A stretch of DNA of 64,000 bases from Allomyces arbusculus. Lineage: Eukaryota > Blastocladiomycota > Blastocladiomycetes > Blastocladiales > Blastocladiaceae. The DNA is taken from assembly GCA_027604705.1 (NCBI GenBank), contig JADHYV010000016.1, positions 1-64,000 of the forward strand. The letters run 5' to 3'. Below are positions 3,692 through 58,475 of this stretch, piece after piece. Each line of letters begins with the position of its first letter. The stretch's first letter is position 1. The translations under genes and the position numbers were made by a program. The notes beneath the pieces are model-generated. The model was not told where the DNA came from, ran no database searches, and saw nothing but the letters and a program-made list of their open reading frames with translations.

Positions 3692-3696
3692 AAAAA
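3692..3696 (-). terminator. Pol III terminator of the first tRNA-Ser
   Basis: A TTTTT run on the minus strand begins six bases past the discriminator base of the tRNA. The second tRNA copy has the same run five bases past its end. Confidence 0.6.
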
Positions 3697-3701
3697 TTTA
3701 T

Positions 3702-3783
3702 CGACAACAGCAGGGTTCGAACCTGCGCACCACTAGGGTAATCGATTAGTAGTCGATCGCCTTAACCACTCGGCCATGTTGTC
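3702..3783 (-). tRNA. tRNA-Ser, anticodon ACT
   Basis: A complete 82-nt class II tRNA. The acceptor stem pairs GACAACA with TGTTGTC, with discriminator G as in serine tRNAs. The D arm carries GCCGAGTGGTTAAGGC (box A) and the T arm GGTTCGAACCC (box B). The long variable arm contains an ACC/GGT stem. The anticodon stem ATCGA/TCGAT encloses the loop CTACTAA, so the anticodon is ACT. It would read serine AGU, and AGC only if A34 is changed to inosine. Eukaryotes normally use GCT here. No intron and no encoded CCA are seen. It lies between the sensor gene and LSM1. Confidence 0.93.
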
Positions 3784-3820
3784 TTGTCACTTTTGACTTG
3801 ACTTCGAGAGCCCACAAAAG

Positions 3821-3828
3821 TATATATA
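3821..3828. promoter_or_regulatory. Palindromic TATATATA between tRNA-Ser and LSM1
   Basis: TATATATA begins 38 bp upstream of the tRNA 5' end. The second tRNA-Ser copy has a TATAT at almost the same distance, which suggests an upstream Pol III TATA element as known in fission yeast and plants. Being palindromic, it could also serve LSM1, whose ATG lies about 275 bp to the right. Function is inferred from position. Confidence 0.45.
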
Positions 3829-20580: not shown

Positions 20581-23500
20581 ATGTGGCAGGGAGACTTGAT
20601 CCAGGAACCCGCGTCGTTACAGCACGGATCAGGGCGGGCGCGGTCACTACCAAGAGCAAGCCGAAGAGCATGGACCCGAAGACAACTCGTGCGAATACTC
20701 GTTTGCGTGCTCCTTGTCGTTATTTTGGCCGGCAAGAATGGTGTGCGCGGGACGGTGTCGACGACGACGTTCAATATTGGCGTGATTTTGCCTTTTACCG
20801 ACCCCAGTGCGTGCCACATCTGCCCGTGCACGACGGCCCCCCGCGCGTCGCTGACACGGTGCTCGCTGCCGGTGCATTGCTAGACGGCACGCCGTACGAG
20901 TCGGTTACGACGCTCTACGACCTGCTCGCGACAGCGTTACCCGTCATGAACAGCCTGAACGCGTCCTTCCGGTTCAATTTGGTTCCTGGCAACTCCAAGA
21001 ACACGCGGTCGGGCGCCGTCGCCGCCATGTTTGATCTCTACGACCGCAACCAGACGGTGGCCTTCATCGGCGAGTCTGGGTCGGGCAACACGGGTCCGAT
21101 GGTCTATGCGGAGAGCCGATTCGGGTCGTGGCATTGTTCGGGCACGGCGTCGAGCACGGCGTTTAGCGAACCCGGCGAGTTTGCGCGGTTTTTCCGCACG
21201 ATTCCGGTTTGCAGTTGCCGCGATCCTGGTGTCTTTCGATTGTTGCAATTATGCTGACGGTGTGTAACGTGGACAGGACGACTCGCAGCAGGGTGTCGCA
21301 ATTGCCCGGTTCGTGAGATCAATGGGGTGGACCAAGGTGAACTTGCTTGTGTCGACCGACTCGTACGGCGGATCCAGTACGTCTGCTGCCGCTGTGGTTG
21401 CGCGAGCAAACCCACTTATTTGTTGCTCTGTCCAGTCGCCACCAGTTTTTCCGACGCGGCCAGAGCGCTCGGCGTGAAACTCTCCCTGAGTGACGTCTAC
21501 TCGCCGGGCGACCAGGACCTGAGCTCACAAGTCGCCAAAATTGCCAATAGCGAGTCGAACATTGTCATTTTCGCCGTGTCGTCGTCGGACGACGCGGTCG
21601 TGCTGTTGCGCGAGGCACGCAGGCAAGGCCTGTTGGGACCGGATCGCGTGTGGGTACGGTCCTTTATTTTTCCTTTTCCTCGGCTCGCTGTTGCGAGCGA
21701 CACTGACGACGCTCCCCTACAGATTGGCACCGATGCGCTCGGCGAGTACTTCACCTCGTCCGTGTTCCCGTCGTCGCCAACGCACGCGAGCGACACGGCC
21801 AACGTGCAGGGCGCCATGTATTTCATGCCGCTCGTCGCAACGGACAGTGCAGCGTACCAGACCATGGCGAATGCGTGGGCCGCGCTTGGGAAAACGACCT
21901 CGGCCGACTCGGTCCCGTACGGCGGGCTTAACTACGACTGCCTGCTCGTATTGGCCAGGGGATTGATTCAGTTGGCGACCAAGGTCGGCGCGGGGAACGT
22001 GAATGCCCCGGGCCTCTTGCTCGTCGGCGATTTTCTGCCGCCGCCGTTTGATGGCGCCACGGGGTCGCTCGCGTTTACGAGTACTGGCGATCGGCTCGGG
22101 TGCGCTTTGAAAATGCGGATCATTCGTTGGCGCGCGCGATATACTGACAACAATCTGGCCGACAGCGACTTTTCCGTGTTGAACATCTACAACGGCGACA
22201 AGCGCGTTGCCTTCAACGTCTACTCGAACGGCACCGTCTCCACCGTCCACCCGCCGCAATTCTACTCGGGTTCTAGCACCCCGCCCGTCGACGTGCCGCC
22301 GAAATCCGTGCAGTACCCGACTTGGGGCGACTCGTTTGTTGTGACCACGTCGGTGGTTCGCGCGCTGCTCATGCTGGCACTCGTGGGCGGGACGGTCGTT
22401 CTGACCGTGAACCGGCACAAGTCGACGGTCAAACACCTGAGTTTCCCGTTCTTGGTCCTTATCACGGTTGGGTGTGAGCTGGTCCTGGCGAGCGGGTTTT
22501 TTGAGATTGGCGAGCCGTCAAGGACAGCGTGTATTGCGCCCGTGTGGACGTTGACGGTCGGCGCGCAGCTGGTGCTGGCGAGTGCGGGGGTCAAGACTTA
22601 TCGGGTGCGTACGTCGGGTGTGGTGTGGTTGTTGGTTTGCGAGATGGCTGACTGACTTCGTGCGCTGGGCATTCGTTATGCAGCTCTGGAAAATATTTGA
22701 CAGTGCGTTTTCGTTGGCCATCTCCCGCAATCTTCGCCAATTCTCTTGTAGGCTAACACCGCTGTTCATCTCTCGTTAGATTCGTCCCTTCGGAAACGGC
22801 TCAAGGCTATTGACAACCACTACCTCGTGCGGTTTGTCGGGCTCCTGATCGCCGTCCAGTCTACCATCTATGCGATTTGGCTCGGCGCGTTCCCGAGTGA
22901 GCCCGTCGCGATGTCGAGCAGGCTTTTCCTATGCTATTCGTGCCAGTCGCCGAACTTGGCCGGGATCAGAGCTGTGACGGTCGTTTCGGTCGCCATTAAT
23001 GTCGTGTTGCTCCTCGCGGTCATGTTCTTGGCGTACAAGGTGCGCCCACGCCCAGGGGAAGGATGGAGGAGGTGGGCGTTGCGCTGATGTTTGTTGTTTC
23101 TCCACTTTAGACTCGCAACGTCGTATCGGCATTTCGCGAGACGACATGGATCATGTACTCGGTTCAGGCATGTCCATCCTCTTTCCAGCCGAATTCGACC
23201 CCTCTCTTTGTCTGACGCCGTGGCATGCTCTCCAGAACATTGGGATTGTCGGCTCGATCATCCTCACCTTTGCCCTCGTCACGTTCCGCGACTTTTCCCT
23301 CGGCGCGTACTACCTGCGCAGCATCCTACTCCTTTACGTCGTCACGTTCACGTACGTCGCGCTTGTCGGCCGCGTCGTGGTCTCGCTCCTGCGCGGCCAA
23401 GGCTCGCACGACACGGCCACCGTGCGGCGCGCGCTCAAGAGCCACATCCATGGACGCACCAGCAGTGTCGGAAACGGGACGGGTGCCGGCGGCGGTGTGA

Positions 23501-23976: not shown

Positions 23977-24633
23977 CTGGTCACGGCGACAGGGAGTCCG
24001 GCGTCCGCGCCGCCGGGTGGGCCGGTTTCGGTGAGCTTGCATGGCGCTACGGTCGCGAGGACGGGGGCGTTGCCGGAGTCGGGAGACTAGACATGACTTG
24101 ATGGCGGGTGGGCTCCTTAGGAGCAGTAGTTGGCAATGAGAAAGAAATAATGGGTAGGCTCGCCATGCTGTTTTCATGCGCGATTGGAGGATGCACTTCA
24201 GCTGCTACATAACTCGTCAAAGAGGGCGTGTTCTCCACCCAATTGTTCCCAATGAGGCCACGTTGTGCTGCCCAACATCCTTCACGACGCTGTTTGCAGG
24301 ACGTAGAGCAGAGCCATCTGGAAACGCGGTCACGTTTCTGATTGTGCCAAGATCACGACCAACATTGTTCGCGACAGGTAATTACCGGCAAGTCGGCCGC
24401 GCGCGCAAGGAATATGTAACGAAACCCGCACTGCCTGCAAAAAGTTGGCTTTGACACGACGCAAATCTTGTGCATCTACCACGACGACGGTCGACCGCAT
24501 TGACCACGACAAACCCGTGCTCTACCCTCCGCCGGTGGGAAGCGCACTAGGTTGAGCCCTGACACCGCGCTCGTCTTGCAACTGTGCCGCCAACTGGCAA
24601 CTACCGCCACCAGTACCATCATTGCCAAGGCAA
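23977..24633. other. GPCR-channel intergenic region
   Basis: A 657-bp spacer between two same-strand genes. Nothing coding was recognised. It should contain the channel promoter. Confidence 0.4.
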
Positions 24634-26853
24634 ATGACGTCGGCGCGCTACCTTGTCGTCGACGCGCGCGACCTGACGCCGTGGCAACGCGCCACGCGCT
24701 GGGTCGTACTCCCGACCTCGCCATGGTATCGCGCCTGGCAGCTCTTCACGCTGATCTGCGTCTACTTGACGGCGTTGCTCGAGCCATTTGTCATGGCGTT
24801 TGCGCGGCAGTCGGCGCCCCTGATTGCCATTTGCTACACGCTCGACGCGCTCTTCATTGTCGACATGTTCTTGCGATTCCACGTGCCTTTTGTCGAGGAT
24901 CGCACGCTGGTCATGGACGTGGTCAGGATATCGCGACGCATGCTCGCTGGCGATTTTTGGATTGATGTAGCGTCGCTGATCCCGCTCGAGGTGATTGCGC
25001 CCGCCGTGCGAATGCCTGGCGCGATGCCGACGCTCGCACAGGCCGTGCTGCGCATGAACCGGTTGGTAGGTTCTGGGATCCGGACCACGGTCTTGCCTGC
25101 AAGCTCTGAGACGACACGGAATGACTGACCGGCTGCGCCGCTGTTTGTGGTCCAGATTCGAGTGACCCGTGTGCTCGCCTACTTTGAGCAGACGCAAAAC
25201 GACCTCTACAAGTCTATGTGGGGCTTTTGCATCAAGTTTGCGTTTCTGATCTCGACCGTTTGCCACTGGTTTGCCTGCGTCATCTACGTCTCCGGGTACG
25301 TGCAGCGCGTGCCCATTCGCGCCATTTCCCGAACCCTCCACCAATTTTACGGATTCCGGATCGTAACCTCTGCGAGTAGCTGCTACGACGACTGCACGGC
25401 AACTGCCTCGCTCACCGACCGGTGGCCCGCGCTGATGCTCCCGCGCGAAGACATTCGCACGATGCCACTCATTTCGCGGTACCTGACGTCGCTCTACTTC
25501 AGTGTTTTCACCATCACGACAACGGGTTACGGCCACCCGGCAGCGACAAACTCCGAGGAGCGCATTGTCGCAGTAGTCGGGTCGGCGCTGTGCAACTTTG
25601 TGTTTGGGTACTGCACGGGCACAGTTACGTCGCTCCTGACCAACTCGCGCGGTCTGCAGGTCCAGTTTCAGCAAAAGATCGAGGCCGTGAAAGAACACAT
25701 GCAGCAGCGCGCGTTCCCGGAAGACTTGCAGTCGCGCGTGCTCGATTACTACAGTTTCCACCATTTGCAGACGGGCGGGTTCAATGCGGCCGACCTGCTG
25801 TTGCGATTGCCGCCGGCGTTTTATGCGGACGTGGCGATGAAGATGAACGAGCAGCTGTTGCGCAAAGTACATTCTTTGATCCCTCGAGGTGGTTGATGAG
25901 TTGTCGAGACTGACTGAGCGGAATTGATTCGATCCAGGTCCCGTTCCTCAGCGAAGCGTCGGTGCCCGTGATCAAGGCCCTCTCGCGGTCGCTGCGCCCG
26001 GAACTCTTCCTCCCGGGCGACCTGATGGTCACCAAAGGCGACGCGGGAAAGGACATGGTGCGGAACCCCGCGCCTCCCCACCTCTCTCCACCCTGACACT
26101 CACACCAGCCCCGCTATCCTCTAGTTCTTCATCCGCCGCGGCAAAGCCGAAGTCGTTTCCGAGGACCTCTCCGAAGTCTACGACGCCATGGGCGAAGGCA
26201 CCTACTTTGGCGAGCTCGCTTTGCTCACGACCGACGCGAAACGCACCGCCAACATCCGCGCCGCCACGCACTGCGACATCCGCGTCCTCGACAAGCAATC
26301 GCTCGACCACGTCCTCGCCCACTTCCCCGACTTGCGGCGCAAAATCGAAGCGCACGCGCAGCACCGACTCGACAGCGTCGAGTCGCGCCGGCGGTCGGAC
26401 GAGGCCGCGTTTGGGCTCGACCCCGCGGCGGCCGCCGCCGCGGCAACGACACCTGCAACAGCAGCGAGCGCTGTACGTAACGCGCAGCTCGGCACACGTC
26501 GGTCGATAGCGAGTGTGGGCTGGGAAGGGGTGGCGCCCGGCTCGCCGCCGCGGTCGCCGAGGCCTTCGCGCGCGGCCGCGACACCGCCGCCGTTGCTCGT
26601 GCGCGCGTCGCAGTCGCAGGGGTCCGGGGCGGCGAATGTGGCGGCCGCGGCGGCGGCGTTTACGAGGCCGTTGCCGCTCGCGCATCGCGCGTCGTTGCCG
26701 GCCACGTCTTTGGTTGCGAGGCCAGTGGGTGCGGCCGGGCACCATCGGCGATCGATGGATCGTGCAGCCGAGGATGCGGCGGGTGTGCGCGATGGCGCGC
26801 AGCTCGGTGGAGGTGGCGCGGGTGGGGCCGGCGGAGGGCCTGTGGGCGAGTAG
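24634..26853 (+). CDS. Cyclic-nucleotide-gated potassium channel
   Basis: Exons 24634-25065, 25156-25866, 25938-26057 and 26125-26853 give 663 residues. Six membrane spans: S1 near WQLFTLICVYLTALLEPFV, S4 with spaced Arg (LRMNRL + IRVTRVLAYF). The pore carries TITTTGYGH at about 263-271, the GYG potassium filter. A C-linker follows (QQKIEAVKEHMQQRAFP). The cyclic-nucleotide-binding domain contains FGELALL and KRTANIRA, with the Arg at about 461 that binds the cyclic phosphate. This matches the KCNH/HCN/CNG superfamily. A K+-selective cGMP-gated channel (BeCNG1) works downstream of the rhodopsin-guanylyl cyclase in Blastocladiella zoospores, and this may be its counterpart or paralogue. The C-tail beyond about 540 is Ala/Gly/Pro-rich and disordered. 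The cAMP versus cGMP preference is not readable. Confidence 0.92.
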
Positions 26854-40840: not shown

Positions 40841-40925
40841 TTACGGTAACAGGATTCGAACCTGCAAGCCGGGGTGATGTCTAATGGACTGTGACTATCC
40901 ACCAATTAAGCACCATTGACTACAA
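40841..40925 (-). pseudogene. tRNA-like relic
   Basis: The minus strand carries a good box B (GGTTCGAATCC) within GCAGGTTCGAATCCTGTTACC and, 50 nt upstream, a box-A-like TGCTTAATTGG. The acceptor and anticodon stems do not pair, so it is not a working tRNA. It could be a decayed tRNA or the head of a SINE. Confidence 0.4.
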
Positions 40926-41255
40926 GCAGTTGCTTCTGGATTAATTCTATTCTTCCATAAAATTAATCCAGGCGATGCACAAAGCAGAATACCAGCTATT
41001 GACTGGAAACTGGCCAAGGCACGCTTTGGCAAGATATTCCCACCTCTTTTCAGATCACCTTCAGGCTGATTTATGGAAAAACGATGGTATTGGGGCTGCA
41101 GCAGCTGAGTGTGCAGCATGAGCAGTTGCACATGCGTTCCAGAATTAATCAATTCAAATTCAGTTTGGAACCACAGGCATCTTCAAAAGGAAAAAGATTC
41201 AATCGTGGTGGCCAATCTACTTGCAAATCGCAAACATCAGAGCAGGCCCATTTTT

Positions 41256-41330
41256 GACAGGACAACAGGGATCGAACCTGCGTGTCGTGAAGAAGAGAAT
41301 TTGGTTGCCCAGTTTCACATCATAGTCTCA
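41256..41330 (-). pseudogene. tRNA-like relic similar to the tRNA-Ser 3' half
   Basis: ACGCAGGTTCGATCCCTGTTGTC on the minus strand closely follows the 3' half of the two tRNA-Ser genes (GCGCAGGTTCGAACCCTGCTGTTGTC). The 5' half does not fold as a tRNA. Likely a partial or decayed copy. Confidence 0.4.
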
Positions 41331-48348: not shown

Positions 48349-48610
48349 CCAAATGGTTGAGCCATCCCAGTATGGTAAATGAAAGACAAATCTGGGGACA
48401 GATGAGGACTGTCAAGCCAGGGATGGATTTGGTTGAGGTATAAAAAGCCGGTCCCGCAGTCATCGCTATGGCCAAGAAGGACAACAAACCACGTCTGCCC
48501 ACTCCCAATCGATGTTCGACACCGACGAAAATGAAGCGGAGGAAAAAAGGGACAACAAGCACAAGAAAAACGTGTACGAAAGGAAAGGTGTCTAAGACTT
48601 CAAAAATTTT
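48349..48610. other. Spacer with an isolated TATA box
   Basis: A clear TATAAAAA lies at about 48439-48446 on the plus strand, 25-30 bp before an ATG at 48468 that opens a short Lys/Arg/Thr-rich frame running into the tRNA. I do not call this frame a gene. Confidence 0.3.
48602..48606 (-). terminator. Pol III terminator of the second tRNA-Ser
   Basis: TTTTT on the minus strand starting five bases beyond the discriminator base. Confidence 0.6.
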
Positions 48611-48692
48611 CGACAACAGCAGGGTTCGAACCTGCGCACCACAAGGGTATCTGATTAGTAGTCAGACGCCTTAACCACTCGGCCATGTTGTC
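48611..48692 (-). tRNA. tRNA-Ser, anticodon ACT (second copy)
   Basis: 82 nt, same fold as the copy at 3702-3783: identical acceptor, D and T arms and discriminator G. It differs in the anticodon stem (TCTGA/TCAGA instead of ATCGA/TCGAT) and in the variable arm. The stem changes are compensated on both sides, so the structure is kept by selection. The loop CTACTAA again gives the anticodon ACT. Confidence 0.93.
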
Positions 48693-48730
48693 CAGTCATT
48701 TTTGACTCGTGTTAAGGTCAGCAAACATGG

Positions 48731-48735
48731 TATAT
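48731..48735 (-). promoter_or_regulatory. TATA-like element upstream of the second tRNA-Ser
   Basis: TATAT (minus-strand context ACATATACC) starts 39 bp from the tRNA 5' end, almost exactly the spacing of the TATATATA before the first copy. Confidence 0.35.
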
Positions 48736-49200
48736 GTACCTTTGTTGCACACTTCAGCTTCAAGGGCTTTGACCCTTACCACTCAACTCAGCCAGCTAAT
48801 TTGACATGGCGTCGCCACTGAGGCGTGTCCAACTGGGTCTGAAATGACTTTCCCAGCCGCGGCTCTGCCGGACCGACCAGTCAAACGACCTTGACAACGG
48901 CTCGATTTCCGCTGGTCTTCGCCACCTTCATTTCCTCTCGCGACTGGACACAACACCATCGCCACTCTGCCCGCGCTGACGACGACCCCAGCAGCACAGC
49001 TGCAGCGACAGCCCCGGACAGAACGATAGCTCGCTGCAAGCACGCGCACTTGGCTCGGCAGACCTCCGACTCGACCGCGCTCTGCCGGCCGTTGCAAGCG
49101 CCACGACTGTTGACGAGGCCAAAGTCATCGGACCGCCGCAGATTGCAATTCGACCCTTGAAGACCAACACCTGGCCGCCGTGCCCACACTGTGCTGCAAG
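48736..49200. other. Intergenic region, tRNA-Ser (-) and scaffold gene (+)
   Basis: Presumed promoter and leader of the SH3-SAM-PH gene. No gene seen. Confidence 0.35.
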
Positions 49201-53316: not shown

Positions 53317-55440
53317 TTACAACCGCCACGCGCGCAACACGCGATCCACCATCCGCTGCCCGACCTCGTTCGCGACCAACCGTAGCGACCCACCCCCACC
53401 CTTGACCTCCACCTCATCCAAACCCACTTCGCCACGTCCGTCCCCCGCGACTGGCGCACCCGCGTCGGCCACCAACCACCCGTCCAACCCGCGCGCGACA
53501 TTACGCGCCAAAAACAGGTCCACTGCGCTCGTCCGCGCCACCGCACGCGGCAGTTGCAGCTGTGGGGATCCCGGCTGCACCTCCATCCCAGCGAGTGTGC
53601 CCGCGAGCCGATCGGTCTGCGCGATCGTCAGGGACGTGTTCTTGACGACCACGACACGGACCGTCGGAAACTGCGTGCCCAGTAGGTCGGCCACCGTGGT
53701 CGCGCAGTGGTAGTGTGCGGCGTTGTCGATCACAAGACATTGTAATCGCGGGCAGGCCGGGAGACGCAGAGGTTCGTCGGTGCGGAGGGCGAGGAGCGAG
53801 GGGAGGATGGGGGTCGACAGCTGCGATGGACCGGACGAGTCGGTTGAGTCGGTCGAACGCGGGAGGAAGGAGGGGACGACGTGGAAGGAGGACCGTGAGG
53901 AGGTGGTGGAGGTAGGGGGGAGAGAGACGAGCGTGATGCCGGAGAGGGACAGGACGGTGATTCGCGCGGCAGTGGTCGGATCGATGCTGAACACGGGTCG
54001 CAGAAGGCTCGATTGCATCGACTGGTACCGCTGGTCGAGTTTGATGCGCGACACGGCCGGTGCGACCACACTCGGCGCTTCATTGCCGTCGGGCTTTGGA
54101 ACCGCATTCGTAGCGGTAGCCACAGCGCGTGCCGAGAACCCGAGCACCGCCACGTCGCGCACTGTCCCGCGATCCACGAGATTTCCGAGCGCAGGCAGGA
54201 GCGCCGCATACGAAGCATCAACTTTGGTCAACGTGAGCGTCCGCAGGTGCGGCAGGTGTGTGCCGAGCGCCTCCATCAACGGCGTGACAGTAGTATCCGA
54301 GACACCCTCGCACCCGCCGAGGGAGAGCAAACGAAGGTTCCGCCACGCGCTGATCGTCGGGATAAACGTGCGAATCCAGGCCTCGGTCATGCCGGCAGTC
54401 GTAGCGACGATGAATCGACGCGCCCACGCCGCCCACGCTGGTGCTGGGACCAGCGGCAGATCGAACGTGATCACGCCGAGGTCCACGGTGGGCCACGAGT
54501 ACTGGACCGCCGCATCCGTCTCGGAAGCTTTGACACGCGCGTCTGTTCCATTTACAAGCGTGCCGTTCCTCGACATGATTTCGGCCTTGCCCACCGTCCA
54601 GTGCGCACAGACGGCGCGCCATGCATCGGGGAACCGCGGCGCGGAATGAGGGGTATAACGCAGGATTCCGTCAATGCGCCCCGAGGCAAAGTCGATCGAG
54701 CTGAGGACAAATGTCCCGGTCGTGCCCGCACCGGGCCCGTCGCTGAACGCAACGGATGTCCACGGGTGAAGGTCGATGGTCGGTGCTGAGAAATGGCCAC
54801 GCCGTGACACGAGCAACGAGACAATGTTGGAAAACACGGCGCGCACGTGGTTGGTCAATTCTTCGTCGCTGTCCCCCCAAAGTTCGCTGTCGGCAGAACA
54901 GTCGACTGTGGCGAGGCGTGGGCACGCGCGAACAATGCACAAGAGCGTGTCGAGTATGTCGGTCGTGAGCCTGGCGCACAGTGCACGTTGCGAGATCACG
55001 ATGGCCTTGAGCTGAGCACGCGGGTGGAGAGTGCCGCTTGCCTGGTGGGTAAGCTCGTCGGCATCACGCGCCTGTTCCGCGTGGTTGAAGCCATGATCGC
55101 TTGGAATGTCTCTGTCGCCCTTGCTACACTCGACAACGCGTGCGAGAGAAGCGAGGGAGCGGCGCGACGTGATCACGACACGCGCGTAGGCGACGGGCAG
55201 AATAGCGGCTTGCGTTGCATGGTTTGCAGCCGCGAAATGGAGCGCGTCGAGCGACTCGAGGTACGTTGCGGCGATGTGTTGGACCAGCTCGGTTGGGAGC
55301 GCAAGAATTGTCGATGGTGTGTTCGTGTTGGCCTTGTTGCTTGAGCTCGGGTCGTCCATCTGGTCGGCGCCGTCATTGTCAAGCGCGGCGCCGCTTGATT
55401 GCGGCGACTTGGGTCGCGGTGGTCTGCTGTCGAAGTTCAT
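53317..55440 (-). CDS. F-box/LRR-like protein, tandem copy A
   Basis: An intronless frame of 707 residues; the start at 55440 (MNFDSRPPRPKSPQSS) is chosen because it aligns with the start of copy B. After a 45-residue acidic, Ser-rich leader comes an F-box-like motif (ILALPTELVQHIAATYLESL, DALHFAAANHA). LRR-like units follow (NLRLLSLGGCEGVSDTTVTP, LPHLRTLTLTKV, ALGNLVDRGTVRDVAVLG). F-box proteins bring substrates to SCF ubiquitin ligases through Skp1. Substrate unknown. It lies 88 bp from the convergent VTI1. Confidence 0.75.
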   Translation of the reverse strand: MNFDSRPPRPKSPQSSGAALDNDGADQMDDPSSSNKANTNTPSTILALPTELVQHIAATYLESLDALHFAAANHATQAAILPVAYARVVITSRRSLASLARVVECSKGDRDIPSDHGFNHAEQARDADELTHQASGTLHPRAQLKAIVISQRALCARLTTDILDTLLCIVRACPRLATVDCSADSELWGDSDEELTNHVRAVFSNIVSLLVSRRGHFSAPTIDLHPWTSVAFSDGPGAGTTGTFVLSSIDFASGRIDGILRYTPHSAPRFPDAWRAVCAHWTVGKAEIMSRNGTLVNGTDARVKASETDAAVQYSWPTVDLGVITFDLPLVPAPAWAAWARRFIVATTAGMTEAWIRTFIPTISAWRNLRLLSLGGCEGVSDTTVTPLMEALGTHLPHLRTLTLTKVDASYAALLPALGNLVDRGTVRDVAVLGFSARAVATATNAVPKPDGNEAPSVVAPAVSRIKLDQRYQSMQSSLLRPVFSIDPTTAARITVLSLSGITLVSLPPTSTTSSRSSFHVVPSFLPRSTDSTDSSGPSQLSTPILPSLLALRTDEPLRLPACPRLQCLVIDNAAHYHCATTVADLLGTQFPTVRVVVVKNTSLTIAQTDRLAGTLAGMEVQPGSPQLQLPRAVARTSAVDLFLARNVARGLDGWLVADAGAPVAGDGRGEVGLDEVEVKGGGGSLRLVANEVGQRMVDRVLRAWRL

Positions 55441-56010
55441 CGTGAAGATGCCGCGTGCAGCTGGCAGCAGTGCACTCTTTCTCGTGTTTCGCCAGGACTG
55501 CACGGCGTTCCACTCAATCATCTGCAAAGGGCTGTCGCGTAACTAATCACTCATACGTTCCTCGCCCGATTCTTCACCGACGGGTCGCGACGCAAGTATT
55601 GAGCCAGAAGGCGGCAGCATTCATGATTGGAGGCAGAAATGTTGGAAACAGAGCCTCAGGCCAGTACAACTCCCATCTCTGAATTCAAAGGGCTTCGTGT
55701 CGACATGCATCTGGCCAATCGTGTGTGATCTGGCGAGGCAACCGCATCATCAGCAGAACTGGAAGATGACTGCCTCATTTTTGCAAAAGCGGCGCTTTGG
55801 TTGCACATTTCGTCGACAAGTCCGGCAATATGGCTTCACGCAGACCTGGTAAGTGTTGCATCGCACTAAAATCCTTTTGCAATCACACTTGACGGTCGTC
55901 GCGCATTCGGTCTCGACGCATGTAACTGACAAGCTCTGGGACAAGGGAGTCAGTAAAAGCCTGATGGATTTCTTGCGGTCAAATGCATCTCCATGATTTC
56001 TATGGACACG
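55441..56010. other. Spacer between the F-box paralogues
   Basis: Holds the promoter of copy A and the 3' side of copy B. Part of it (55750-55944, minus strand) is an open frame rich in cysteine, noted as a finding. No intact gene is called. Confidence 0.4.
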
Positions 56011-58188
56011 CTACAACTGCCACGCGCGCAACACGCGATCCACCATCTTCTGGCCGACCTCATTTGCGACCAACCGCAGCGCGCCGCCCTCGACCCCGAG
56101 CGCATCCAAATCCACTTCACCGTGCCCATGCATGTCCGATACCGGCGCGCTCGCGCCGGCCACCAACCACCCGTCCAACCCGCGCGCAACGTTGCGCGCC
56201 AAAAACAAGTCGACCGGCCTTGTCCGCACAACTCCGGATTTCGTCCTCGGGCCAGCCCGCGGCAGTGGGCGCCGCGGGGATCCCGGCCGCCCCCCGACTC
56301 CGCCCATCCCAGCGAGTGTCCCAGCGAGCCGATCGGTCTGCGCAATCGTCAGGAACGTGTTCATGACGACCGCTGTCCGGACGGTTGGGAACTGCGTGCC
56401 GAGCAGATCGGCGATGACACTCGCGCGGTGGTAGTGGGCGGCGTTCTCGATCACCAGACATTGCAGTCGCGGGCAGGCGGGCAGGCGCAGCGGTTCGTCG
56501 GTGCGCAAAGCGAGTAGTGATGGGAGGATGGGGGTCGACAGTTGTGTGGGCCCGGCCGGATCGGTCGGGCGCGGGAGGAAGAAGGGGACCACGTGGAGTG
56601 AGGTGCGCGGGGAGGTGGTCGTGGGTGGAAGGGAGGCGAGGGTGATGCCCGAAAGGGACAGAACGGTGAGCCGCGCGGCGGCGGCGGGGTCGATGCTGAA
56701 GACAGGTCGGAGAAGACTCGATTGCATTGACCGGTACCGCTGGTCGAGCTTGATGCGCGTGATGGTGGGGGCGAACACGGTGTCGGTGGCCTCTGCGGCG
56801 TCAGGTTGTGGAGCTGCAGTCGCGGCAGCGCGCGCCGAGAATCCGAGCACGTTCACGTCACGCAAGGTCCCGAGGTCGGCGAGCGCAGCGAGCGCCGGCA
56901 AGAGCGCCGCATACGATGCCTCCACCTGCATCAAGGTGAGTGTGTGCAAGTGTGGCAGGTGCGCCCCGAGCGCCTCGAGGAGCGGCGCGACAGTCGCATC
57001 CGAGACCCCCTGGCACGCGCCGAGAGAGAGCGAACGAAGGTTCTGCCAGACGTCGACCGTCGGGAGAAAATCGGTGACCCACGTCTCGGGCATCGAGACA
57101 ACCCGGCTCGTGAGCTGCCGCGTCCATGGGGCCCAGACTGGCGCCGGGTCGGTCGGCAGGCTCAGCATGGTAACGGCCACATCTGCAGCGCGCCATGAAA
57201 ATGGGACAGCTGTCGCCACCGGATCATCATCGACAATGGGTGACGGGGAGGTAAAAATCGAGTCGGGATCGTCCAAGTGCACTTTCGCAACGGACCATTG
57301 TGCACTCGCGGAGCGCCACTCGTCTGGGAATGGCGACGTCGAGACGTGATTCCGGACCCGCTTGAGCAGGATCCCTCCCACGTGGCCCAGCGCAAAGTCA
57401 ATCGATTCGACCACAAGAGTCGCAACGGTGCCAGCGCTGGGTCCATCGCTGACCACAACGGGGATCCACGGGAGCTGGCCGTGCCTCGGCGCAGAGAACC
57501 GGCCGCGCCGTGGTGCGAGCGCCGAGACGATCTCGTGAATAACAGAGCGCATCTGGTCGGCCCAGGCGGCTCTCAGTTCCTGCTCGTCGCCTCCCAGGGA
57601 ACAGTTGGCGGTGTCGAGGTTTGGGCACGTGTGCACGATCCGGGCAAGCGTGCGAATCATGTCGGCCGTGACGTTGGCGCTGATCACGCGCGGTGCGACC
57701 GAGATCGCCTTGAGCAAGGTGCGCGGGTGCAAAGTCGACAAACTGGACGCGTGGTCCGTGATGTCGTCGGCAGGCTGGACAGGTTTCGCGTCGTTCTCCT
57801 CGCTGCCAGTGCCGTCTGCATCTACGCCAACGTTACCATTGATAATACCGCCATCGACGCGGCTACACTCAACGGTTCGAGCGAGAGCAGCCAGTGCGCA
57901 ACGTGACGTGATCACAACGCGTGCGTAAACGGCGGGCAGCACAACGGCACGCGTCGCATGGCTCGTAGCCGCCAAATGGAGCGCGTCGAGGGGCGTGAGG
58001 TACTTTGCAGCAATGAGCTGTAGCAGTTCTGTCGGGAGTGCGAGAATCGCCGGTGGCAGGCTCGTCGCGTTCGTATCGACCATCTTACTTGGGCTCGGAT
58101 CGGCCATCTGGTCAGCACCGTCATTGGCACGCGCAGCGTCGCTTGGTTGCGGTGACTTGGGTTGCGGCAGTCCGGTGTCGAAGGTCAT
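56011..58188 (-). CDS. F-box/LRR-like protein, tandem copy B
   Basis: An intronless frame of 725 residues from the ATG at 58188 (MTFDTGLPQPKSPQPSD). It is paralogous to copy A along the whole length: the same F-box (LPTELLQLIAAKYLTPLDAL), the same LRR block (NLRSLSLGACQGVSDATVAP) and the same ends (NEVGQKMVDRVLRAWQL). A spacer of about 40 residues between F-box and repeats differs most. The same orientation and 2.7-kb period show tandem duplication. Both copies are open, so both may work. Confidence 0.75.
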   Translation of the reverse strand: MTFDTGLPQPKSPQPSDAARANDGADQMADPSPSKMVDTNATSLPPAILALPTELLQLIAAKYLTPLDALHLAATSHATRAVVLPAVYARVVITSRCALAALARTVECSRVDGGIINGNVGVDADGTGSEENDAKPVQPADDITDHASSLSTLHPRTLLKAISVAPRVISANVTADMIRTLARIVHTCPNLDTANCSLGGDEQELRAAWADQMRSVIHEIVSALAPRRGRFSAPRHGQLPWIPVVVSDGPSAGTVATLVVESIDFALGHVGGILLKRVRNHVSTSPFPDEWRSASAQWSVAKVHLDDPDSIFTSPSPIVDDDPVATAVPFSWRAADVAVTMLSLPTDPAPVWAPWTRQLTSRVVSMPETWVTDFLPTVDVWQNLRSLSLGACQGVSDATVAPLLEALGAHLPHLHTLTLMQVEASYAALLPALAALADLGTLRDVNVLGFSARAAATAAPQPDAAEATDTVFAPTITRIKLDQRYRSMQSSLLRPVFSIDPAAAARLTVLSLSGITLASLPPTTTSPRTSLHVVPFFLPRPTDPAGPTQLSTPILPSLLALRTDEPLRLPACPRLQCLVIENAAHYHRASVIADLLGTQFPTVRTAVVMNTFLTIAQTDRLAGTLAGMGGVGGRPGSPRRPLPRAGPRTKSGVVRTRPVDLFLARNVARGLDGWLVAGASAPVSDMHGHGEVDLDALGVEGGALRLVANEVGQKMVDRVLRAWQL

Positions 58189-58475
58189 GGCAATGATGCG
58201 GCTGGCTGTGAGGTCGAACAAAATGGTGATCGTGCCTCGTGTTGCTTTCGTCTTGCACGCGCCCAAGCCCTCTAATCTGAACCAAAGCCAACCCAAGCAC
58301 CATCCAGCCGCAGTTAGCGGCCGGGGATTGTTTATGGACTCTTCCTACGTTGGTGCAACGGACAAAAAACATGTTGGTTTGCTCCAAAACTGTGACTGCG
58401 TGGGCTCATTTGTTTTGCGTCTTCGTTTTCGTCCCGCTTCACTGCAACAACCACTTTTGGCAACCCTCGAAACAG

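What the first reader, a model, noticed from the sequence alone, without database searches (positions are those of the whole stretch)
3702..3783. Two serine tRNAs with anticodon ACT and covarying anticodon stems
Seen: both tRNA-Ser genes (here and at 48611-48692) have loop CTACTAA, hence A34-C35-U36, while their anticodon stems differ by compensated changes (ATCGA/TCGAT against TCTGA/TCAGA). Known: eukaryotes read AGU/AGC with anticodon GCU; an A34 that becomes inosine could also read AGA, an arginine codon. Inference: this lineage may have replaced G34 by A34 in the split Ser/Arg box, and must then either leave A34 unmodified, add a safeguard, or also keep a GCT tRNA for AGC.
Basis: partly seen in the sequence, partly recalled or inferred. 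Interest (0 to 1): 0.78.

Follow-up and report, generated by a model that had tools for sequence, protein, structure and literature searches.

The report
Serine tRNAs with a "missing" anticodon
A GC-rich, probably fungal genome carries two intact serine tRNA genes whose anticodon (ACU) is normally avoided because it could misread an arginine codon, and that arginine codon is almost unused in the same stretch of DNA.

Summary
ARAGORN and Rfam find two tRNA genes in the window, both minus-strand tRNA-Ser with loop CUACUAA and anticodon ACU. All 23 arm pairs form in both. They differ at 7 of 82 bases: three fully compensated anticodon-stem pairs and one variable-loop base. Flanks have diverged to background except a 17-base leader, with a TATA-like element near -45 and T5 terminators kept. 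Error or pseudogene is therefore unlikely. A review calls A34 in the Ser/Arg box universally missing (PMC8007984, passages), but exceptions are in print, and I found Ser(ACT) in viral contigs and Polynucleobacter. New here: AGA, the codon inosine-34 could misread, is 1 of 2,452 codons in strictly Pfam-supported stretches and 1 of 3,725 in a looser set. GC bias alone explains that, but it removes most of the cost. Best reading: A34 becomes inosine, reads AGU and AGC, and is tolerated because AGA is nearly empty. Whether Ser-GCT has been replaced cannot be tested: no genome of this organism is held. Unmodified A34 beside a GCU tRNA elsewhere is a serious rival.

The parts
3702..3783 (-). tRNA-Ser gene, copy A, 82 nt, G73, 3-bp variable stem, no encoded CCA
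3748..3750 (-). anticodon ACT of copy A (A34 C35 T36)
3784..3800 (-). 17-base 5' leader conserved with copy B (76% identical against 31% shuffled)
3820..3828 (-). TATA-like TATATATAC near -45
   Evidence: role in Pol III initiation inferred
3692..3696 (-). T5 run just 3' of copy A, Pol III terminator type
48611..48692 (-). tRNA-Ser gene, copy B, 82 nt
48657..48659 (-). anticodon ACT of copy B
48693..48709 (-). conserved 5' leader of copy B
48730..48738 (-). TATA-like TACATATAC near -46
48602..48606 (-). T5 run just 3' of copy B

Best explanation
Shown: two intact, separately drifting nuclear-type tRNA-Ser genes with anticodon ACU, each with A box, B box, conserved leader and T5 run. Inferred: they are transcribed by Pol III and charged with serine, since the long variable arm and G73 are what SerRS reads and it ignores the anticodon (recalled). 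Inferred: the ADAT2/3 deaminase turns A34 into inosine, so one tRNA reads AGU and AGC. Inferred: the usual penalty, serine at AGA arginine codons, is negligible because GC pressure has nearly emptied the AGA codon and the cognate tRNA-Arg(UCU) competes. Near-extinction of a codon would then be what let a forbidden wobble base become fixed.
For: Structure, compensation and divergence of the flanks. AGA 1 of 2,452 strict and 1 of 3,725 looser codons. AGC is used as often as AGT in the strict set (14 and 14), 20 to 15 in the looser set and 99 to 40 in whole ORFs, so a decoder of AGC is needed, which I34 would supply. ADAT2/3 is described as choosing substrates by geometry, needing a 7-base loop and A34 (PMC9643335, passages); the loop here has 7 bases. 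A34-C35 is also found in the accepted substrate tRNA-Arg(ACG). PMC5372738 states that genomes with an A34 isoacceptor do not also hold the G34 one, with exceptions in large tRNA sets.
Against: No RNA data. PMC5372738 also says yeast ADAT favours a purine at 35, with Arg(ACG) as an exception, so C35 is unfavoured. AGA is not rarer than GC bias predicts (Fisher p 0.67 looser set, 0.69 whole ORFs), so there is no sign of selection against AGA itself. The whole-ORF set holds 12 AGA codons. No genome-wide tRNA census was possible.
Confidence: 0.5

Rival explanations
1. A34 stays unmodified because ADAT rejects C35 in a Ser body. The tRNA then reads mainly AGU, and a tRNA-Ser(GCU) elsewhere in the genome reads AGC.
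For: Unmodified A34 reads mostly U-ending codons, and in a Ser tRNA background read U strongly with minor C and no apparent A or G (PMC11066159, passages). C35 is ADAT-unfavoured (PMC5372738). In the looser codon set AGY has a higher T share (15 of 35) than six other split boxes pooled (186 of 755), p 0.027; in the strict set it is 14 of 28 (other boxes not counted there).
Against: That T excess vanishes in whole ORFs (40 of 139 against 393 of 1,452, p 0.69), and Phe and Ile show a like T share in the looser set (0.42 and 0.44). No GCT tRNA was found in the window. G34/A34 coexistence is described as unusual outside large tRNA sets (PMC5372738).
Confidence: 0.33
2. The genes are tRNA-derived pseudogenes or non-decoding RNAs, as considered for A34 predictions in large animal tRNA sets.
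For: PMC5372738 raises this for the cow and other large sets. Two lone T-arm-like stretches lie at 40849 and 41265.
Against: 23 of 23 pairs in both copies, three compensated pairs, intact A and B boxes, T5 runs. The repeat family has only two copies in 64 kb (D6).
Confidence: 0.07
3. Sequencing or assembly error at position 34.
For: None found.
Against: The same A34 stands in two copies with different stems and unrelated flanks.
Confidence: 0.02
4. AGA is being captured by serine, so that it is ambiguous or reassigned.
For: AGA is nearly empty, the usual first step of codon capture (recalled). Of five AGA codons in the paralogous ORFs at 53-58 kb, three align between them and face I, G and G, neither R nor S.
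Against: No AGA codon was shown at a conserved Ser site. Too few AGA codons to test either way.
Confidence: 0.04

Closest known systems
Eukaryotic tRNA-Ser(GCU)
   Same: Long variable arm, G73, loop CUNCUAA with C32 and A37, split Ser/Arg box (family features recalled)
   Different: A34 in place of G34
Eukaryotic I34 tRNAs of the TAPSLIVR set, above all tRNA-Ser(AGA) and tRNA-Arg(ACG)
   Same: Encoded A34, 7-base loop; A34-C35 as in Arg(ACG)
   Different: Those lie in three-, four- or six-codon boxes where I34 causes no missense; this lies in a split box
Reported tRNA-Ser(ACT/ACU): Schmidtea (PMC2770079), chlorella virus ATCV-1 (PMC4810235), human tRNA-Ser-ACT-1-1 (PMC6779403)
   Same: Same anticodon and amino acid
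   Different: Predictions or table entries in the passages I saw; no paired copies, covariation or codon argument there
tRNA-Ser(ACT) of viral contigs and Polynucleobacter found here
   Same: Same anticodon loop CTACTAA
   Different: Bacterial-type bodies of about 90 nt, many of the 12 commonest forms printed with an encoded CCA; a Ser-GCT match is present in 6 of 6 bacterial genomes searched; eukaryotic ADAT2/3 absent (recalled)

Membership tests
Cytosolic tRNA-Ser (eukaryotic) | tRNA fold above Rfam gathering score | tested here: met
   61.6 and 63.5 bits against 29
Cytosolic tRNA-Ser (eukaryotic) | Long variable arm and G73 | tested here: met
   14-nt variable region with ACC/GGU stem in both copies, last base G
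Cytosolic tRNA-Ser (eukaryotic) | Internal A and B boxes and T-run terminator | tested here: met
   A box at 8, B box at 62 in both; T5 within 10 nt of the 3' end in both
Cytosolic tRNA-Ser (eukaryotic) | Charged with serine | not testable with these tools
   No biochemical data
tRNA-Ser(GCU) | G34 | tested here: not met
   A34 in both copies
I34 (ADAT2/3 substrate) tRNAs | Encoded A34 in a 7-base loop on a full tRNA body | tested here: met
   CUACUAA loop, 23 of 23 pairs
I34 (ADAT2/3 substrate) tRNAs | Purine at 35, or the Arg(ACG) exception | tested here: not met
   C35 in a Ser body; criterion from PMC5372738, while PMC9643335 reports sequence-independent selection, so the criterion itself is disputed
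I34 (ADAT2/3 substrate) tRNAs | Inosine at 34 in the mature tRNA | not testable with these tools
   No RNA reads

The most novel reading that the evidence does not exclude
This lineage has wholly replaced tRNA-Ser(GCU) by an inosine-34 tRNA-Ser(ICU) in the Ser/Arg split box. GC pressure nearly emptied AGA first, so AGA now stands as a codon readable by both a serine and an arginine tRNA, one step from codon capture.
Probability: 0.35. Interest if true: 0.8.

Novelty: new variant of a known kind. Interest (0 to 1): 0.52.

Why it matters
Eukaryotes avoid A34 in split codon boxes, and a review treats the Ser/Arg case as universally missing. A natural, duplicated, apparently functional exception in a genome where the endangered codon is nearly empty would let one ask directly whether the rule is held by miscoding cost or by deaminase specificity, and whether near-extinction of a codon precedes changes of decoding.

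Tried and rejected
Codon signs of decoding mode. AGC versus AGT gave p 0.027 toward AGT in the looser codon set and p 0.69 in whole ORFs; I treat it as no result. AGA avoidance beyond GC bias: none (p 0.67 and 0.69). AGA at conserved sites: the codon sets hold one AGA, and its ORF had no PDB match at E up to 0.01, so no test was possible.

Hidden Ser-GCT in the window. T-arm matches at 40849 and 41265 looked as if they might belong to an intron-containing tRNA. Rfam gives the first at best 22.2 bits to tRNA-Sec against a cut-off of 47, and gives the second no tRNA match at E up to 5. ARAGORN with its threshold lowered to 60% calls several mutually inconsistent candidates there. One is a Ser(gct) on the plus strand at about 40870-40973, which contains neither T-arm match. 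Whole-window runs with a lowered threshold or in mitochondrial mode gave many calls that I take as spurious (of the -ps80 run I saw only the first 13), and a run with unlimited introns added one Glu spanning the window ends. I reject these.

Relatives. Viral-contig scans for the window's own tRNA shape gave 0 for three patterns. Plasmids gave no match to copy A. A viral Ser(ACT) gene as query matched 2 of 50,697 phage records at about 75% identity, both annotated tRNA-Ser; I did not look at their anticodons. Those aimed at Ser-ACT or at this group listed no report of Ser-ACT in a fungus, but several lists were cut (30 of 44; 15 of 2,971, 20 of 29,478 and 15 of 349), and the library is open-access PMC only. 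PMC9858662 held nothing on A34 in the passages searched.

Full report
Check of the observation. Two tRNA genes are found in the window by ARAGORN and Rfam at gathering score. No other tRNA row appears with Rfam at E up to 1 or with ARAGORN with introns of 0-300 nt (option -io). Both are tRNA-Ser with anticodon ACT on the minus strand, at the coordinates given. The DNA read directly agrees.

Are they real genes? Each of 23 arm pairs (7 acceptor, 3 D, 5 anticodon, 3 variable, 5 T) is a standard pair in both copies. The copies differ at 7 of 82 positions. Six of these make three compensated pairs in the anticodon stem and the seventh is the middle of the variable loop. Random placement of seven substitutions reached three compensated pairs in 5 of 2,000,000 trials. 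Outside the genes, ungapped identity is at shuffled level from -18 outwards (0.28, 0.32 and 0.28 for three bins against 0.25-0.29) and from +16 onwards (0.28 and 0.26 against 0.30 and 0.25). The 17 bases just upstream stay 76% identical against 31% shuffled; the first 15 downstream bases are 47% against 32%, not significant. A TATA-like element sits near -45 in both, and a T5 run follows within 10 nt. A and B boxes are intact. By its flanks the duplication is old, and both copies have been held by selection on the RNA fold while A34 was kept. Folding energy alone is unremarkable (z -1.93 and -1.84).

What the anticodon means. A34 in the Ser/Arg box is called universally missing in a review based on more than 60 eukaryote species (PMC8007984, passages). 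The stated reason for such avoidance is that inosine at 34 would read the purine-ending codon of the other amino acid, together with a deaminase preference for a purine at 35 (PMC5372738, passages and its sections 8 and 10). A structural study says ADAT2/3 recognises geometry rather than sequence (PMC9643335, passages). Unmodified A34 reads mostly U-ending codons (PMC11066159, passages). The sources pull in different directions on whether this tRNA, with C35, would be deaminated.

Codon use. I counted three sets. (a) Strict: 14 best Pfam stretches of proteins scoring at or above the curated cut-off, 2,452 codons: AGA 1 of 121 Arg codons; AGC 14 and AGT 14 of 146 Ser codons. (b) Looser: 15 stretches, 3,725 codons, GC3 0.83: AGA 1, AGG 11, CGN 161; AGC 20, AGT 15, UCN 176. 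This set uses the importin-like ORF whole (886 codons) although its Pfam hit of 25.3 bits is below the cut-off of 27 and spans residues 655-738, includes an ion-channel stretch at 24.8 against 25, and runs beyond single Pfam segments in the MutS, receptor and subtilase ORFs. (c) 17 whole ORFs, 8,813 codons of less certain frame: AGA 12 of 535 Arg codons, AGC 99 and AGT 40 of 675 Ser codons. I chose the ORFs by hand from 142 mechanical ones with Pfam results. In (b) and (c) AGA is as rare as the shares of AGG, CGA and CGG predict (p 0.67 and 0.69), so GC pressure suffices. What matters for the tRNA is that the codon it could misread is almost absent.

Mechanism. AGC is used at least as often as AGU in all three sets, so if these genes are the main decoders of that half box they must read C; inosine would do it. 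If A34 is unmodified, a GCU tRNA must exist elsewhere. Two of two tRNAs being ACT argues weakly for ACT as the main form, but they may be a local pair. The T share of AGY codons leans to the unmodified reading in (b) (p 0.027) and is neutral in (c) (p 0.69).

Organism. The GC-rich DNA holds an Hsp60 whose best PDB matches are 'glomalin' (740.6 bits) and a mitochondrial Hsp60-like protein (712.2), well ahead of entry 6ht7, mitochondrial 60 kDa heat shock protein (537.2; human, recalled). This fits a fungus (source species of the two best entries recalled as fungal). The Blastocladiomycota placement was not tested.

Elsewhere. A pattern for Ser(ACT) hit 8 records of genome contigs (6 titled Polynucleobacter, 2 beta-proteobacterial MAGs) and 52 viral contigs, which I take mostly for phages from their bacterial-type tRNAs. 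ARAGORN calls Ser(act) in 60 of 60 of these loci, as the pattern would favour, with 32 distinct sequences. Six genomes searched (from 6 of the 8 bacterial loci; the other two lie in the same assembly as L005 by record name) all also have a Ser-GCT pattern match. So the anticodon is tolerated as an accessory in viruses and bacteria, and 'universally missing' is too strong. The case in this window differs because no G34 partner is seen nearby and eukaryotic ADAT2/3 would be expected.

Verdict. A correct and well-made observation of a rare anticodon in a sound pair of genes. Isolated exceptions already in print keep it from being categorically new, and the decisive census and RNA data lie outside these tools.

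Noticed in passing
window 40849-40865 and 41265-41281, minus strand: Two lone T-arm/B-box-like sequences, 2 mismatches each from the tRNA-Ser T arm (4 matches in all including the two genes, 0.37 expected). The second is part of a 33-nt stretch 85% identical to the 3' end of copy B. Decayed tRNA pieces or stand-alone B boxes.
   Followed up: partly
L001, L010-L060: tRNA-Ser(ACT) in 52 viral contigs, often among other tRNA genes. The 60 loci together (8 bacterial included) hold 309 tRNAs, among them Leu(AAG) 6, Phe(AAA) 2 and Asn(ATT) 2, so other split-box A34 tRNAs occur there too.
   Followed up: partly
L002 3195-3284; L005, L006, L007, L009: Polynucleobacter Ser(ACT) lies just before an integrase-like ORF in L002 (assignment by eye). 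Three contigs of one assembly carry Ser(ACT) with Gly(CCC), two of them also with Thr(CGT), as does L009 of another genome, suggesting a repeated mobile element.
   Followed up: partly
window 53317-55527 and 56011-58296: Neighbouring paralogous ORFs, 439 of 721 aligned residues identical, with no Pfam match at E up to 0.001.
   Followed up: no
window 21327-22652 and 24622-26850: A class C receptor-like ORF (ANF_receptor plus 7tm_3) near three ORFs with ion-channel and cNMP-binding matches that may be exons of one cyclic-nucleotide-gated channel (exon joining inferred, the first ion-channel match just below its cut-off).
   Followed up: no
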